NCBI GenBank assembly: GCA_022565795.1
Contig: JAIUMA010000029.1
Span: forward strand, 1 to 38,731
Source of the DNA: Balneolia bacterium
Lineage (GTDB): Bacteria; Bacteroidota; Rhodothermia; Balneolales; Cyclonatronaceae
Reading direction: 5' to 3'
Length of the DNA: 38,731 nucleotides
Shown here: in pieces, positions 5,049 to 33,904 of the stretch
Position numbering within the stretch: position 1 is the stretch's first letter
How the letters are laid out: each line of letters opens with the position of its first letter
Position numbers and translations under genes: made by a program
Notes under the pieces: model-generated
What the model was told of the DNA's origin: nothing
The model's input: the letters and a program-made list of their open reading frames with translations, nothing else
Database searches by the model: none

Positions 5049-5612
5049 TTGAAAGAACTACGAATCCAGCATATGGTTTGCCCCCGCTGCATCGAAGCTG
5101 TAGAGGAAGGTCTGCGAAAAAATGATATGCAGTGGTCTTCCGTTGATCTTGGCAGGGTTGTGCTGACCAAAGAGCCGGAAAAAAAGCAGCTTGAGGACTT
5201 CTCTGAATACATAAATAGCAGAGGATTTGAGCTGATTCAGGAAAATAAAGATGCGCTGGTTTCCGATATCAAAAGCGGATTAATCCGGTACCTGGAGCAA
5301 ATCGAGTCGGGTGATGAACCGGGGAATTTTTCAGACTGGCTGAGTAAAAGACTTCATAAAAACTATAGCTACCTGAGTGACAGGTTTTCCGAAACGACGG
5401 GACAAACCATAGAAAGGTACTACATCAAGCTTCGGACAGAGCGGGCGAAGGAGCTGCTTGAAGCTGATATAATGCAAATCGGAGAAATAGCTCACGTTTT
5501 GGGATACAGCTCCTCACAGCACTTTTCAGCTCAGTTCAAGAATGTTACAAATCTCAGCCCCGGTAAGTGGAAAAAAACGTTCGAAGGCAGAAAGGGACTG
5601 GTTGATTTATAA
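5049..5612 (+). CDS. AraC-family regulator with N-terminal HMA-like metal-sensing domain
   Basis: 187 residues from a TTG start at 5049. The next in-frame ATG (5073) would cut off the first beta strand of the domain. Residues 1-65 resemble a degenerate heavy-metal-associated (HMA) fold with MVCPRC at 9-14 (Cys11, Cys14), in place of the usual GMxCxxC. Residues ~95-180 form an AraC-type double helix-turn-helix: TIERYYIKLRTERAKELL, IGEIAHVLGYSSSQHFSAQF and LSPGKWKK. Such fusions are common next to copper genes in Bacteroidetes. The protein most likely senses Cu(I) and controls copA and the genes downstream. There is no classic sugar-type AraC ligand domain. Confidence 0.85.
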   Translation: MKELRIQHMVCPRCIEAVEEGLRKNDMQWSSVDLGRVVLTKEPEKKQLEDFSEYINSRGFELIQENKDALVSDIKSGLIRYLEQIESGDEPGNFSDWLSKRLHKNYSYLSDRFSETTGQTIERYYIKLRTERAKELLEADIMQIGEIAHVLGYSSSQHFSAQFKNVTNLSPGKWKKTFEGRKGLVDL

Positions 5613-5730: not shown

Positions 5731-8157
5731 ATGACCGAAACAATGACTAAAACCCGACTTGATGTACACGGCATGAGCTGCGCATCCTGCGTTGGAGGAG
5801 TGGAAAAAGCTCTTAACCGTCTGGATGGTGTAGTTGAATCATCCGTGAACCTGGCCACAGAACAGGCCGATGTTACATTCGATGCCGAAAAAGTCTCGGT
5901 TAGCGATATTCTCAAAGCTATAGAGGATGCCGGTTATGAAGCGGCTGAGCAGCAAAAGCGAGGTTCATCTTCCTCCTCTGAGTACAGGCTTGCCATTGGC
6001 GGCATGACCTGCGCTACCTGCGTATCCGGTGTTGAAAAAGCAATTTCCAGAGTTGAGGGCACCTCAGATATTTCCGTAAATCTGGCAACCGAGGAAGCCC
6101 GCTTTAAATGGGGCGGCTCAGATACGGAACGTATCATTCAGGCAATAGAGGACGCCGGTTTTGAAGCCAGCGTTGAGGAAAGCAATATCCCGGCCGGAGC
6201 GTCGGTGCTGAGCGGTGACTCCGCTTTTAAAAGACGTTTTCTGATTGCGCTTCCGCTCGCCTTTGTAGTAAGCGTGATGGATATGGGGCCGATGCTTATC
6301 GAAAGCTGGCATCATGCTATTCATAACTACATCTTTGAGTGGAATCTTGCGCAGCTGCTGCTCACGGGTTTCATCATGTTCTATGCGGGACGCTCGTTTT
6401 TTACGGGAGCCTGGAAGGCGCTTAAGCGTAAAGCGGCCGATATGAACTCATTGGTAGCTGTCGGTACGGGCGCGGCGTTTTTATTCAGCGGGTATGCCAC
6501 GTTTTTTGGGGTTGAGGGCGGCCTGGTTACGCCCATGGACGTCTATTTCGATACGGCGGCCGTCATCATTGCGCTTATACTTCTGGGTAAATGGATGGAA
6601 GAGCGGGCACGCTACAAAAGCCGGGACGCGCTCAGCGGCCTCATTAAGCTAACCCCTCAAAGAGCGCACAGAATAAAGGGTGATAACACCACGGAAACCA
6701 TCACCCTTGATAAGGTAAAATCCGGCGATGTGCTGCTGGTTAAGGCATTTGAGCAGGTTCCTGTCGATGGCGTTGTTGAAGACGGCACTCCTTCTGTAGA
6801 TGAGTCGATGATGACCGGTGAAAGCGTGCCGGTCGATAAAACGCAGGGTGATAACGTTACCGGAGGAACCCGGAACACAGACCGCTCTTTCCGGATGAAA
6901 GCAACCGCCGTTGGTGAAGAAACCGCACTGGCGCGCCTGATCGAAACTGTGAAAACGGCTCAGGGTTCAAAGCCGCCGATTCAGCGTCTGGTAGATAAGC
7001 TGGCGTCTGTATTTGTGCCGGTTGTAATCGTGATTGCGCTTATCACCCTAACCGTTTGGATGCTGATAGACGGGGACCCTGCCAAAGCGATTGTGAATAT
7101 GGTCGCGGTGCTGATTATCGCGTGTCCATGTGCTTTAGGACTGGCAACGCCTACCGGAATAATGGTCGGATCCGGCCGTGCAGCAGAAAAGGGAATCCTG
7201 ATAAAAGACGCGGTAACGCTCGAAGAAGCGCGAAAGGCTGACGTAATTTTACTTGATAAAACAGGTACCCTCACAACGGGCGAAATGCAGGTCAGTAACG
7301 TAAGGCCTGTTTCAGGAATAGAAGAGAACGAGTTGATTCGCCTTGCAGCAGCTGTCGAAACTCAAAGCGATCATCCGATTGCTCAGGCTGTTGTACGATA
7401 TGCCGAAAAGCTGGATATCAAGCTGCCGGATGCACAGGAGGTTGAGACCAGGGCCGGATCCGGAATTAAAGGCCGGGTGGAAAACAGCCTGATAGAAATC
7501 GGATCGGTGGAGCTTATTGAAAACGAAAAAGCGAAATATGATGACCTCATTGCCGGAGAGCAGGAAAAGGGGCGCACGGTTCTTGTGGTGAAGGCAGATA
7601 AGGCAATAGCGGGATTCATAAGCGTGAGTGATGAGCCCAGAAAAGACGCTGAGGCCTTCATCCGAAAGCTGAAAAAGCTGGATATTCATCCGGTTATGGT
7701 GACCGGAGATCAGGAGCGAACCGCGAACTATGTGGCAGGCAGCCTTGGTATTGAAGACGTGCGGTTCGGTGTTAAGCCGGAAGGCAAGGCGGATATCGTC
7801 AAGCAATATCAGGATAAAGGCAAACGTGTTGCGATGGTCGGCGACGGTATAAACGACGCTGCTGCGCTGGTTCAGGCGGACCTGGGCATTGCGCTGTCGG
7901 GCGGGACGGACCTTGCGGTTTCCTCGGCAGACATCACGATTATGGGAGATAGCCTGGATAAAGTCGCTGAGGCCATCATCCTTTCGCGGGGCGCACTCAG
8001 AATTATTCGACAGAATCTGTTTTGGGCATTCATATACAATACGGTTGGAATTCCGCTTGCCGCGTTCGGAATTCTCAGCCCAATGTTTGCGGCTGCAGCC
8101 ATGGCGCTTAGCTCGGTGAGCGTGGTATCAAACAGCCTCAGGATTAAGAGATTGTAG
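5731..8157 (+). CDS. copA: Cu(I)-exporting P1B-type ATPase CopA
   Basis: 808 residues, full length. It has two N-terminal HMA domains with GMSCASC (14-20) and GMTCATC (91-97). The intramembrane CPC metal site is at 465-467 (ACPCALGLATP). The actuator loop TGES is at 362-365, the phosphorylation site DKTGTLT starts at Asp509, SDHPIAQA binds nucleotide, and the hinge GDGINDAAAL starts at 704. It pumps Cu(I) (or Ag(I)) out of the cytosol at the cost of ATP. The gene follows the HMA-AraC regulator by 118 bp and is likely under its control. It ends in the usual SVVSNSLRIKRL segment. Confidence 0.97.
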   Translation: MTETMTKTRLDVHGMSCASCVGGVEKALNRLDGVVESSVNLATEQADVTFDAEKVSVSDILKAIEDAGYEAAEQQKRGSSSSSEYRLAIGGMTCATCVSGVEKAISRVEGTSDISVNLATEEARFKWGGSDTERIIQAIEDAGFEASVEESNIPAGASVLSGDSAFKRRFLIALPLAFVVSVMDMGPMLIESWHHAIHNYIFEWNLAQLLLTGFIMFYAGRSFFTGAWKALKRKAADMNSLVAVGTGAAFLFSGYATFFGVEGGLVTPMDVYFDTAAVIIALILLGKWMEERARYKSRDALSGLIKLTPQRAHRIKGDNTTETITLDKVKSGDVLLVKAFEQVPVDGVVEDGTPSVDESMMTGESVPVDKTQGDNVTGGTRNTDRSFRMKATAVGEETALARLIETVKTAQGSKPPIQRLVDKLASVFVPVVIVIALITLTVWMLIDGDPAKAIVNMVAVLIIACPCALGLATPTGIMVGSGRAAEKGILIKDAVTLEEARKADVILLDKTGTLTTGEMQVSNVRPVSGIEENELIRLAAAVETQSDHPIAQAVVRYAEKLDIKLPDAQEVETRAGSGIKGRVENSLIEIGSVELIENEKAKYDDLIAGEQEKGRTVLVVKADKAIAGFISVSDEPRKDAEAFIRKLKKLDIHPVMVTGDQERTANYVAGSLGIEDVRFGVKPEGKADIVKQYQDKGKRVAMVGDGINDAAALVQADLGIALSGGTDLAVSSADITIMGDSLDKVAEAIILSRGALRIIRQNLFWAFIYNTVGIPLAAFGILSPMFAAAAMALSSVSVVSNSLRIKRL

Positions 8158-19513: not shown

Positions 19514-19894
19514 ATGATGAGTTCAAAACATGCACAGTACGAAAATCACGATAAAGAAAATCATTCGGAAGATAACGGACATGCCCACAATCACGACCAC
19601 AGCGATCATGAGCACCTCAGTCCGGGGGTGTTTCGGGACCGGTTTTGGGTGAGCTTTGCGCTTACGCTGCCCATTCTGTATCTCACCGAACAAATACAGC
19701 AGTGGATTGGGTCGGTTATGAAGCCATTTCGTTTCCGGGTGATGAATGGGTGGCGCCGGTATTCGGGACGATATTGTTCTTTCACGGCGGTTGGTCTTTT
19801 GCTCACGTCCGCCGTCGTAGCCATATATATGAGCACCTCTGTGATAATTGTTGCCGTAAACGCCATGCTGATGCGAAGGGCGATGCTGTCGTAG
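19514..19894 (+). pseudogene. Remnant of a CopB-like P1B-type copper ATPase (large internal deletion plus frameshift)
   Basis: The frame at 19514 starts with a His-rich region (HAHNHDHSDHEHLSPGVFRD), then FWVSFALTLPILYLTEQIQQW, typical of the CopB N-terminus and first membrane helix. Near 19709 the frame shifts: GYEAISFPGDEWVAPVFGTI and LFFHGGWSF continue in the other frame. At about 19791 the sequence jumps to the extreme C-terminus in the first frame (SAVVAIYMSTSVIIVAVNAM, then LMRRAML), which matches the last helix of P-type ATPases. The actuator, CPC/CPH site, DKTGT and GDGIND regions (well over 500 residues) are missing. It cannot encode a working pump. Confidence 0.85.
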
Positions 19895-20014: not shown

Positions 20015-21145
20015 ATGAGCAAGATTACCAGATCATTCAACCTTTCGGATCTCCTGCAAAAAGGTAAAGTCCTGATACTATACGGTGCGAGGCAGGTTGG
20101 CAAGACTACGCTGGTTCATCACTTCCTGGGAAAAACATCGCTCAACCATGCATTTTACACCGGGGATGATATGTCCTTTGGTGCTGATTTAGCGAAATGC
20201 GACCTCACCATCATAAAAAAAATGGTTCAGGGTTTGGAGCTGTTCGTAATCGATGAGGCTCAAAAAATTGAAAATATCGGTACTGCCCTGAAGCTGATTG
20301 TTGATAATTTTCCTGAAGTGTATGTGATAGCCACAGGTTCCTCATCTTTTGATTTAGCCAATGCAGCTGAGGAGCCGCTTACCGGAAGAAAGAATGTGAT
20401 ATCGCTTTATCCCGTCGCTATCAGCGAGCTGGCTGCCAAAAGTACGGTTTATGAAGTTGAAAGGCGCCTTGAAGATCTGTTGATTTACGGTTCTTATCCT
20501 GAAGTAGTAATTATGGATAACCACGATGAGAAAGTGAATCGTATCACCGAAATAAAAAACTCGTATCTCATCAGAGACATACTCGAATTTCAGCTTCTGA
20601 AACGATCTAACATAATTCTCGATCTGCTGAAACTGCTCGCATATCAAATCGGGAGTCAGGTTTCTACTGTTGAGCTGGGCAAACAGCTGGGGCTGGATTA
20701 TAAAACCGTTCAGCGATATCTGGATCTGCTGGAAAAATCGTTTGTGCTGGTATCTCTACATGGGTTTTCAAGAAACCTGAGAAAGGAAGTGAGTAAAATG
20801 AATAGGTATTATTTCGTGGATAACGGAATCAGAAATGCCGTTATCGCTAATTTCAACACTTTGGACAAGCGCAATGATGTGGGGCAGCTCTGGGAAAACT
20901 TCCTGTTCATCGAGCGTCTTAAGCGAAATGCGTTCAAGAAAAAAACCGCCAATTACTACTACTGGCGCACATATGACCAAAAGGAAATCGATTTGATTGA
21001 AGAAACGGGGGGGCAGTTAAACGGCTACGAATTCAAATGGGGAAGCGGTAAAAAAGCAAAGGCCCCGAAAGACTGGACAGAAACCTACGATAACGCAACC
21101 TGGGAGCTTATTACACGCGAAAACTTTGCCGAATTTGTGATGTGA
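20015..21145 (+). CDS. AAA-family ATPase with DUF4143 C-terminal domain
   Basis: 376 residues. The Walker A motif GARQVGKTT is at 24-32, Walker B is LFVIDEAQ at about residue 75-82, and a sensor-like VIATGSSSFDLAN follows. The C-terminal half is DUF4143: SQVSTVELGKQLGLDYKTVQ, KSFVLVSLHGF, RYYFVDNGIRNA, and a PD-(D/E)XK-like end (YYYWRTYDQKEIDLIE, then GYEFKWG). These proteins are widespread, mobile and functionally poorly defined, often scattered among genomic islands. No partner gene is adjacent. It sits between the decayed CopB gene and a decayed transposase, which fits acquired DNA. Confidence 0.9.
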   Translation: MSKITRSFNLSDLLQKGKVLILYGARQVGKTTLVHHFLGKTSLNHAFYTGDDMSFGADLAKCDLTIIKKMVQGLELFVIDEAQKIENIGTALKLIVDNFPEVYVIATGSSSFDLANAAEEPLTGRKNVISLYPVAISELAAKSTVYEVERRLEDLLIYGSYPEVVIMDNHDEKVNRITEIKNSYLIRDILEFQLLKRSNIILDLLKLLAYQIGSQVSTVELGKQLGLDYKTVQRYLDLLEKSFVLVSLHGFSRNLRKEVSKMNRYYFVDNGIRNAVIANFNTLDKRNDVGQLWENFLFIERLKRNAFKKKTANYYYWRTYDQKEIDLIEETGGQLNGYEFKWGSGKKAKAPKDWTETYDNATWELITRENFAEFVM

Positions 21146-28899: not shown

Positions 28900-29397
28900 A
28901 TGAAATCTTTTTTGTCACTCCTTATTTTCTCATCAGCTTTTCTGATTCTTCTTTCTGCCTGCTCAGACAGCGTAAGCCCGGTAGTTGAGGATGAGCCCGA
29001 TCCGGAAGCTCCACCAGTTGTAATCGGACCGGGAGCAGTAATTACGCTCGATAATTCCGGAGCACAGGCTTATCTGGTACTCGATATTGAAGGGGAGGGA
29101 GCTTCAGCCGAGCTGGATGAACCAAATCCGGAAATAACTTTGGAAGCAGGAATGCGCTACACTTTTATTAATGAGTCCGGTGCGTCGAGCCATCCGTTGG
29201 ATTTCAGGAATGCAGACAATCAAAAACTTTTCGGGCAGAGCAATCAGTCCGGCCTGCTGGATGACGATGAGTCAGTAGACGTAGAGCGCGACGGAAACCT
29301 GATTAGCTTTAACCTCACGGAAGAGCTGGCTGAGGTATTGGCTAATTACGTCTGTTCCTTTCATCCGGGCATGGGCGCCGCAATCATAATAGAATAA
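28900..29397 (+). CDS. Cupredoxin (plastocyanin-like) lipoprotein
   Basis: 165 residues. A lipoprotein signal (FLILLSAC, Cys21) and an acidic Pro-rich linker precede a cupredoxin domain (~45-165). A full type 1 copper ligand set is visible: His98 (SSHPLDF) and Cys152, His155, Met158 in CSFHPGM. It should bind a blue copper ion and act as an electron carrier or copper store on the periplasmic face of a membrane. It stands alone, outside the main copper island, so its partner is unknown. The gene is convergent with the SnoaL-like gene, 37 bp away. Confidence 0.88.
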   Translation: MKSFLSLLIFSSAFLILLSACSDSVSPVVEDEPDPEAPPVVIGPGAVITLDNSGAQAYLVLDIEGEGASAELDEPNPEITLEAGMRYTFINESGASSHPLDFRNADNQKLFGQSNQSGLLDDDESVDVERDGNLISFNLTEELAEVLANYVCSFHPGMGAAIIIE

Positions 29398-32422: not shown

Positions 32423-33904
32423 TTATCTGGCTGTGAGGCCAAGAATCACATAGGTCGTGAGGTCGGTAGTGCTCAGCTCCTGAAGCGGATCGTGGACCAC
32501 AAAGAAGCCTTCGTAGTTTCTTGTCAGCTCGTTGAATGATAGCGGCGAGATGTTATCACCCGTACCGCTCATACCGTCAGCCATCACGCCGCCGGCAAAT
32601 ACATCGCCGTTTGGCGTCTCATTGTATGGCGTGCCGTTAGGAGTGGTGCTCGGATCGGCTGCATCGTGGCTGTGTACCGGATAGGTCTCGCCTGCAACTG
32701 TGTTATTCAGCATCACGATTACTTCAGTTGTGCCGTCGATTTGCTCGTTGAGCGTAAGCGTAGCGCTCAGGTTGCGCGGGTGGTCGCCTTCATAGGCAAG
32801 TGATGGATCGTCCAGCAGCTGACCTTCATTAAAATCGTAGTTGAATGTAGCTGAGCGCAGGTTCGCTTCACCTTCTTCAAGATCCTCAGCGAAGATGCCA
32901 AGTACCAGGTAGGTAGTCAGGTCTGTAGTGCTGATATCCTGAGTTGGATCATGCACGACCAGAAACGCGCCGTACTCTTCAGTTAGCTCTACCCATGAGA
33001 TTTCGGTCTCATTAGAAAGGCTTGCAGAACCGCCGTTGCCAGAAATCGCTCCGGCAAATACATCACCGTTCGGAGTTTCGTTATAAGGAGTACCGTTTGG
33101 CGTTTCGGCCGGATCGGCAAAATCGTGCGCATGCACCGGATAGTTGAATCCATCAAGCGTATTTTCCAGCGTGATGGTTACATTGGCCATTCCGTTCGGA
33201 CGCTCTTCGATCAGCAAAATAGCGCTCAGGTTACGCGGGTGATCGCCCGCTCCGTCGCCGTCATAAGCGGTGTCAGGATCACCGAGAAGCTGCCCTTCGT
33301 TGAAGGCATACATAAACTCGGCAGAGCGCAGGCTAAGGTCACCCGGAGCAAGATCATCACCAAATACACCAAGAATAAGGTAGGTGGTTAGATCGGTGGT
33401 GCTCAAATCCTGAAGCGGATCGTGTACTACAAGAAAGCCTTCATACTGGTTTACAAGCTCCATATAGTCGATGTCGGTCTCGTTGGTTTGCATCACCGTG
33501 CCGCCATTACCGGAAATACCGCCGGCAAAGATGTCGCCATTTGGCGTTTCATTGTAAGGCGTACCGTTTGGTGTGGTAGCCGGATCAGCCGCATCGTGGG
33601 CGTGTACGGGATAAGTGACGCCATCAACGGTGTTGCGAAGGGTGATGATGACGTTGGCATTTCCGTCAGCTCGTTCTTCGATAGTAAGCTCGGCGCTGAG
33701 GTTTCTCGGGTGATCCCCGCGGTATGCTGTGTTTACATCGCCCAGAAGCTGCCCTTCATTGAAGGCGTAGTCGAACGAAATTTCACCGGTTTCAGGATCC
33801 GGGGCCACGGTAGATGAGCTGCTGTCGCAGGCGGCAAAAATGCCGAGGGAAAGCAGCGTGATAATCATCAGGTAGGTTACTGATATCTTTTTAGAGGTAA
33901 TCAT
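32423..33904 (-). CDS. Lipoprotein with three tandem Cu/Zn-SOD-like domains
   Basis: 493 residues from ATG 33904; the frame opens 24 codons earlier but the signal starts here (MITSKKISVTYLMIITLLSL, GIFAAC, Cys26). Three repeats of ~148 residues follow (about 43-190, 197-345 and 353-490). Each has HPRNLSA, YPVHAHD (or HSHD), TPNGTPYNETPNGD and FLVVHDP..DLSTTDL, ending LGVFG-like. This parallels Cu/Zn SOD: GFHVHEF (Cu ligands), GDLGN, LVVHEKADDLG (third Cu ligand) and CGVIG. Candidate copper His are 101/103/161, 258/260/318 and 411/413/471. The bridging and zinc His, the disulfide Cys and the active-site Arg are not seen, so it may store or bind copper rather than dismutate superoxide. Confidence 0.75.
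   Translation of the reverse strand: MITSKKISVTYLMIITLLSLGIFAACDSSSSTVAPDPETGEISFDYAFNEGQLLGDVNTAYRGDHPRNLSAELTIEERADGNANVIITLRNTVDGVTYPVHAHDAADPATTPNGTPYNETPNGDIFAGGISGNGGTVMQTNETDIDYMELVNQYEGFLVVHDPLQDLSTTDLTTYLILGVFGDDLAPGDLSLRSAEFMYAFNEGQLLGDPDTAYDGDGAGDHPRNLSAILLIEERPNGMANVTITLENTLDGFNYPVHAHDFADPAETPNGTPYNETPNGDVFAGAISGNGGSASLSNETEISWVELTEEYGAFLVVHDPTQDISTTDLTTYLVLGIFAEDLEEGEANLRSATFNYDFNEGQLLDDPSLAYEGDHPRNLSATLTLNEQIDGTTEVIVMLNNTVAGETYPVHSHDAADPSTTPNGTPYNETPNGDVFAGGVMADGMSGTGDNISPLSFNELTRNYEGFFVVHDPLQELSTTDLTTYVILGLTAR
32435..33778 (-). repeat. Three in-frame ~148-codon tandem repeats
   Basis: The units lie at about 33335-33778, 32870-33316 and 32435-32848. They share long identical peptide blocks (TPNGTPYNETPNGD, STTDLTTY) with many silent changes, so duplication is not recent but the sequence is held by selection. 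The middle unit carries a short insertion (GDGAGDHPRN). Confidence 0.85.

What the first reader, a model, noticed from the sequence alone, without database searches (positions are those of the whole stretch)
32423..33904. Triple Cu/Zn-SOD-like lipoprotein that keeps HxH and VVH but lacks other SOD residues
Each of three repeats shows the order H-x-H, GD..G, LVVHDP..DL, LGVFG, which tracks Cu/Zn SOD (HVHEF, GDLGN, LVVHEKADDLG, CGVIG). The copper-type His are retained in all three units, while the bridging/zinc His, disulfide Cys and catalytic Arg are not visible. It may be a multi-site copper-binding surface lipoprotein, comparable in concept to copper-only SOD repeat proteins.
Basis: partly seen in the sequence, partly recalled or inferred. 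Interest (0 to 1): 0.7.

Follow-up and report, generated by a model that had tools for sequence, protein, structure and literature searches.

The report
Triple SOD-fold putative copper lipoprotein
A bacterial envelope protein made of three copies of an unnamed relative of the copper enzyme superoxide dismutase keeps the copper-binding histidines in every copy and sits beside a copper electron-transfer protein in related bacteria, so it is probably a three-site copper protein of the cell surface.

Summary
Window 32423-33904 (-) encodes a 493-aa lipoprotein with three ~145-aa repeats. The mature protein has exactly 12 histidines, four per repeat, at identical spacing (36-2-58), and no Cys except the lipid anchor. 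No Pfam or NCBIfam model matches. The AlphaFold2 unit model (pLDDT 95.9) finds mostly Cu/Zn SODs in the PDB. Profile comparison joins the family, through an intermediate family, to CHRD and Sod_Cu, with HxH and VVH in register with CHRD's. The bridging/zinc histidines, disulfide and loop-VII arginine are absent. A cupredoxin lipoprotein is encoded beside the gene in 11 genomes and fused to it in Longimonas. I read it as a bacterial SOD-fold, probably copper-binding surface lipoprotein: a new variant related to CHRD and analogous to animal Cu-only SOD repeat proteins. Copper binding and SOD activity are inferred, not shown.

The parts
32423..33904 (-). 493-aa lipoprotein gene with three SOD-fold repeats
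33827..33904 (-). signal peptide and lipobox (FAA-C26)
   Evidence: Cys26 invariant in full-length alignment
33356..33778 (-). repeat 1 (aa 43-183): H65, H101, H103, H161
32885..33319 (-). repeat 2 (aa 196-340): H222, H258, H260, H318
32426..32848 (-). repeat 3 (aa 353-493): H375, H411, H413, H471
28900..29397 (+). cupredoxin-like lipoprotein (type-1 ligand set H, C-x2-H-x2-M); its orthologue is adjacent to, or the domain is fused with, the SOD-like gene in relatives

Best explanation
Each repeat is a small eight-stranded SOD-type barrel. The His pair on strand 4 (HxH) and the His at the end of strand 7 (VVH) form one copper site, so the protein can carry three coppers outside the cytoplasm on a lipid anchor. 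The zinc site, disulfide and long electrostatic loop of SodC are gone, which leaves an open, copper-only site. I think it handles copper redox chemistry at the envelope together with the neighbouring cupredoxin: it holds surface copper and probably scavenges superoxide or other oxidants. Shown: repeats, invariant His, lipoprotein signal, cupredoxin association. Predicted: SOD fold. Inferred: copper binding (about 0.7), superoxide scavenging (about 0.35), surface exposure (about 0.6).
For: AF2 unit model pLDDT 95.9, pTM 0.90. Foldseek PDB hits mostly Cu/Zn SOD or CCS, prob up to 0.99; single repeats of the full-length model also match SODs, including SOD5. Profile chain: A2 vs intermediate family E 2.5e-11 with HxH and VVH/VNVH in register; intermediate vs CHRD E 1.4e-9, 22 of 33 members hit Pfam CHRD, vs Sod_Cu E 6.5e-5, and Candida Cu-only SOD5 is the top PDB hit, E 6.6e-4. 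Four invariant His in 47/47 units, no Cys. Cupredoxin gene near it in 11 genomes, all those where both lie on one contig, co-occurrence Fisher p 5e-16 not corrected for phylogeny, and fused in Longimonas. The same cupredoxin domain is fused to the CHRD-like HxH repeats elsewhere. ECF sigma/RskA anti-sigma genes nearby in six genomes. Precedent: DR_0644, an envelope SOD-fold protein assigned a three-His Cu site, in a complex that quenches superoxide (PMC9823218).
Against: No direct significant match to PF00080 or PF07452, and direct hhalign to either is not significant. Foldseek E-values are modest (6e-3) and TM-scores 0.42-0.50. There is no bridging-His equivalent, no conserved Arg in loop VII and no disulfide. 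The copper export genes of the window lie 13-27 kb away and are not conserved neighbours. CHRD domains of human chordin have the fold without metal His, so the fold alone does not imply copper.
Confidence: 0.66

Rival explanations
1. It is a true superoxide dismutase: three open-site Cu-only SOD domains that disproportionate superoxide at the cell surface, replacing SodC, which this genome lacks.
For: SOD fold and Cu-type His; this genome has no PF00080 match and two Fe/Mn SODs; open-site Cu-only SODs and CSRPs without an extended loop VII are active (PMC13017621).
Against: The bridging-His equivalent retained by SOD5, the loop-VII Arg and the disulfide are absent; genomes G009, G026 and G076 have both this gene and SodC, so simple replacement does not hold.
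Confidence: 0.3
2. It is a copper store or sponge: redox-silent His sites bind surface copper and hand it to the cupredoxin or keep it away from the cell.
For: Three sites per chain, all-His ligands, acidic mature protein pI 4.05, cupredoxin partner, CopA and CusABC-type genes elsewhere in the window.
Against: Copper export genes are not conserved neighbours in relatives; SOD-type sites usually exchange electrons.
Confidence: 0.3
3. It is a structural or adhesive surface repeat protein on a re-used SOD/CHRD scaffold, as chordin is, with the His serving structure or another metal.
For: Chordin CHRD domains have the SOD barrel without metal His (PMC13382577); related CHRD-like and FAS1 repeats occur in the same kind of proteins; a long conserved TPNGTPYNETPN loop has no counterpart.
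Against: Absolute conservation of exactly four His per unit, and association with a cupredoxin, favour copper.
Confidence: 0.2
4. The resemblance is coincidence: an unrelated beta-sandwich with fortuitous HxH and VVH motifs.
For: Direct profile comparisons with CHRD and Sod_Cu are not significant.
Against: The intermediate family bridges both ways with His in register, and the independent fold search gives mostly SODs.
Confidence: 0.04

Closest known systems
CHRD domain (PF07452), including the Bacteroidota HxH...VNVH repeats found here as the intermediate family A6
   Same: SOD-like barrel, HxH and a third His in register, tandem repeats, envelope proteins, fusion to the same cupredoxin domain
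   Different: Window units miss the Pfam model, lack GEIRGQ, have an extra invariant His before strand 2 and a long TPNGTPYNETPN loop
[quoted passage not shown]
   Same: Tandem SOD-fold domains, no zinc site, short loop VII, extracellular and membrane-anchored
   Different: CSRPs have 4-12 repeats, a disulfide per repeat and often the SOD5-type Cu site; here 1-3 repeats, no Cys, no bridging-His equivalent; different lineage
Fungal Cu-only SOD5 (4n3t)
   Same: Top PDB sequence hit of the intermediate family, and SOD5 is among the fold hits of the window protein; zinc-less, open-site type
   Different: SOD5 keeps four Cu His (75, 77, 93, 153), a disulfide and E110/D113
DR_0644 of Deinococcus radiodurans (PMC9823218)
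   Same: Bacterial envelope SOD-fold protein assigned a three-His Cu site (74, 76, 182)
   Different: Single domain in an S-layer complex; its homology to this family was not tested here
Bacterial SodC (PF00080)
   Same: Fold; HxH and VVH
   Different: No zinc ligands, bridging His, disulfide or Arg; no match to the model

Membership tests
Sod_Cu (PF00080) | Match to curated model | tested here: not met
   no hit for the protein or for any of 47 units
Sod_Cu (PF00080) | Eight-stranded SOD Greek-key barrel | tested here: met
   AF2 and Foldseek, (prediction)
Sod_Cu (PF00080) | Four Cu His including bridging His, and zinc ligands in loop IV | tested here: not met
   HxH and VVH kept; no conserved His in the loop after HxH
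Sod_Cu (PF00080) | Intramolecular disulfide and catalytic Arg | tested here: not met
   0 Cys in 47 units, no conserved Arg in loop VII
CHRD (PF07452) | Match to curated model | tested here: not met
   only the intermediate relatives match
CHRD (PF07452) | Homology to CHRD domains | tested here: met
   Through intermediate family only; direct comparison not significant
[quoted passage not shown]
   anchoring and location predicted from sequence
[quoted passage not shown]
[quoted passage not shown]
   needs protein
Bacteroidota surface lipoprotein | Lipobox plus acidic export signal after Cys | tested here: inconclusive
   Most relatives carry C-[SND]-D-D like the SDDDD/SDDFE signals of PMC5080379; the window copy has CDSSSS

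The most novel reading that the evidence does not exclude
A bacterial lineage independently built a tandem, zinc-less, disulfide-less Cu-only SOD-type protein whose fourth copper ligand has moved from loop IV to the strand 1-2 loop (the invariant G-x-H), and which works as a redox pair with a type-1 cupredoxin on the cell surface.
Probability: 0.2. Interest if true: 0.75.

Novelty: new variant of a known kind. Interest (0 to 1): 0.52.

Why it matters
The reviewed copper-only SOD repeat proteins are from animals and their unicellular relatives. This would be an unnamed bacterial counterpart with a different site make-up, and it bridges CHRD, a large family of mostly unknown bacterial function, to copper chemistry. 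The cupredoxin pairing and fusions suggest a bacterial envelope copper-redox module, repeated in several domain combinations, that can be tested with one small stable domain.

Tried and rejected
Direct Pfam, NCBIfam and PDB sequence searches with the protein and units found nothing. Direct hhalign of the units against CHRD and Sod_Cu was not significant; the intermediate family was needed. The viral structure library was uninformative beyond weak SOD and CHRD hits. Replacement of SodC was rejected as a general rule, because several genomes hold both. Conserved linkage to Cop/Cus copper export was rejected: these genes sit in the window but are not neighbours in relatives. Library dN/dS functions failed at saturation, so counts were done with my own script. 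Distances between His could not be measured because no coordinates are returned.

Full report
Observation. The gene at 32423-33904 (-) encodes a 493-aa lipoprotein. It has three repeats of 141-145 aa. The mature protein holds exactly 12 His, at 65/101/103/161, 222/258/260/318 and 375/411/413/471, and no Cys except the anchor Cys26. So each repeat has the same four His, 36, 2 and 58 residues apart.

The family. Of 245 genomes of the class, 24 have a match, from full-length relatives at 66-76% identity down to short fragments and one distant relative. A scan of species genomes gave 31 loci in Balneolia, Longimonas (Rhodothermia), Cyclobacterium, Indibacter, Mongoliibacter, Litoribacter, Saprospiraceae and Schleiferiaceae. 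Proteins have one, two or three units. A unit tree groups units largely by position in the protein, so the duplication is old. In 47 units H23, H59, H61 and H119 are invariant. Between the window gene and its nearest relative pN is 0.18 and pS 0.74, so the protein is under strong purifying selection. No Pfam or NCBIfam model matches the protein, and no Pfam model matches any unit convincingly.

Fold. AlphaFold2 on the unit alignment gives pLDDT 95.9 and pTM 0.90. The strands run in SOD order, with HxH on strand 4 and VVH at the end of strand 7, the positions of the Cu ligands in SOD (SOD anatomy from established knowledge; ligand numbers in PMC13017621). Foldseek against the PDB returns mostly Cu/Zn SODs and CCS domains at probability up to 0.99, E about 6e-3 and TM 0.42-0.50. 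Repeats of the full-length model also match SODs, including Candida SOD5. The E-values are modest, so the fold call rests on agreement with sequence evidence.

Sequence bridge. Direct profile comparison with CHRD (A4) or Sod_Cu (A5) is not significant. A distant relative, L024, matches the window units (E 1e-6 to 3e-4) and Pfam CHRD (E 8e-9). Its family (A6, 33 units) matches the window units at E 2.5e-11, with HxH on HxH and VVH on V-N-V-H. A6 also matches CHRD at E 1.4e-9, and 22 of 33 members hit Pfam CHRD. A6 matches Sod_Cu at E 6.5e-5 over the first half only, and its best PDB hit is Cu-only SOD5 at E 6.6e-4. Crystal structures show that CHRD domains are SOD-like barrels (PMC13382577). 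The E-values are for single comparisons. Together this places the repeats in the SOD/CHRD superfamily as an unnamed branch.

Context. A cupredoxin-like lipoprotein (window 28900-29397) has a conserved type-1 set, H then C-x2-H-x2-M, in all ten sequences aligned. In the 11 genomes where a close cupredoxin homologue and the SOD-like gene are on one contig, they lie 188-883 bp apart in ten and 3,032 bp in the window; in four more genomes they are on separate contigs. Co-occurrence is 15 of 24 against 2 of 221 genomes (Fisher p 5e-16, not corrected for phylogeny). In Longimonas halophila the domain is fused to two SOD-like units. The same domain is fused to CHRD-like HxH repeats and to fasciclin-type repeats in other proteins (fasciclin recognised by eye). 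An ECF sigma factor and an RskA-type anti-sigma factor lie near the gene in six genomes of three groups. The window's genome has no PF00080 or PF07452 match and two Fe/Mn SODs.

Mechanism. I think each repeat binds one copper through HxH and VVH, and the protein acts with the cupredoxin in copper redox chemistry or oxidant scavenging outside the cytoplasm. Most relatives have C-[SND]-D-D after the lipid Cys, like the surface export signals of Bacteroidota (PMC5080379); the window copy has CDSSSS, so its surface exposure is less sure. An envelope SOD-fold protein with a three-His Cu site has been proposed in Deinococcus, in a complex that quenches superoxide (PMC9823218). Whether this protein is catalytic is open: the bridging-type His, the Arg and the disulfide are missing. 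The role of the fourth invariant His is unknown. In ordinary SOD topology its loop is on the other pole of the barrel from the copper, so I do not claim it as a ligand.

Verdict. It is a new variant of a known kind.

Noticed in passing
window 28900-29397 (+): Cupredoxin-like lipoprotein with H and C-x2-H-x2-M ligands, below the Pfam Copper-bind cut-off; conserved neighbour or fusion partner of the SOD-like gene
   Followed up: yes
L030, L031, L034, L035, L042, L052, L057: ECF sigma factor plus RskA_C anti-sigma factor pair 0.1-2 kb from the SOD-like gene in Balneolaceae, Longimonas and Saprospiraceae
   Followed up: partly
L141, L181, L182-L188, L190, L191: The same cupredoxin domain fused C-terminally to CHRD-like HxH repeats and/or fasciclin-type repeats in other Rhodothermia and Balneolia proteins
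   Followed up: partly
L132, L134, L135, L138: CHRD-like HxH...VNVH domains in tandem arrays of four or five, an intermediate family between CHRD and the window units
   Followed up: partly
window 5049-5612 (+): Small protein that looks like an HMA metal-binding domain fused to an AraC-type DNA-binding domain, directly before the CopA-type ATPase at 5731-8157
   Followed up: no
window 19514-19894 (+): His-rich fragment that looks like the truncated start of a P-type ATPase, followed by an AAA-ATPase-like gene at 20015-21145
   Followed up: no
L037 8604-9053: Second unit of this two-unit protein carries a His-rich insertion (GHSHGSTSSHGG) before strand 6
   Followed up: no
window 32423-33904, aa 65, 222, 375: A fourth invariant His per repeat (G-x-H) without counterpart in CHRD or SOD; role unknown
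   Followed up: partly
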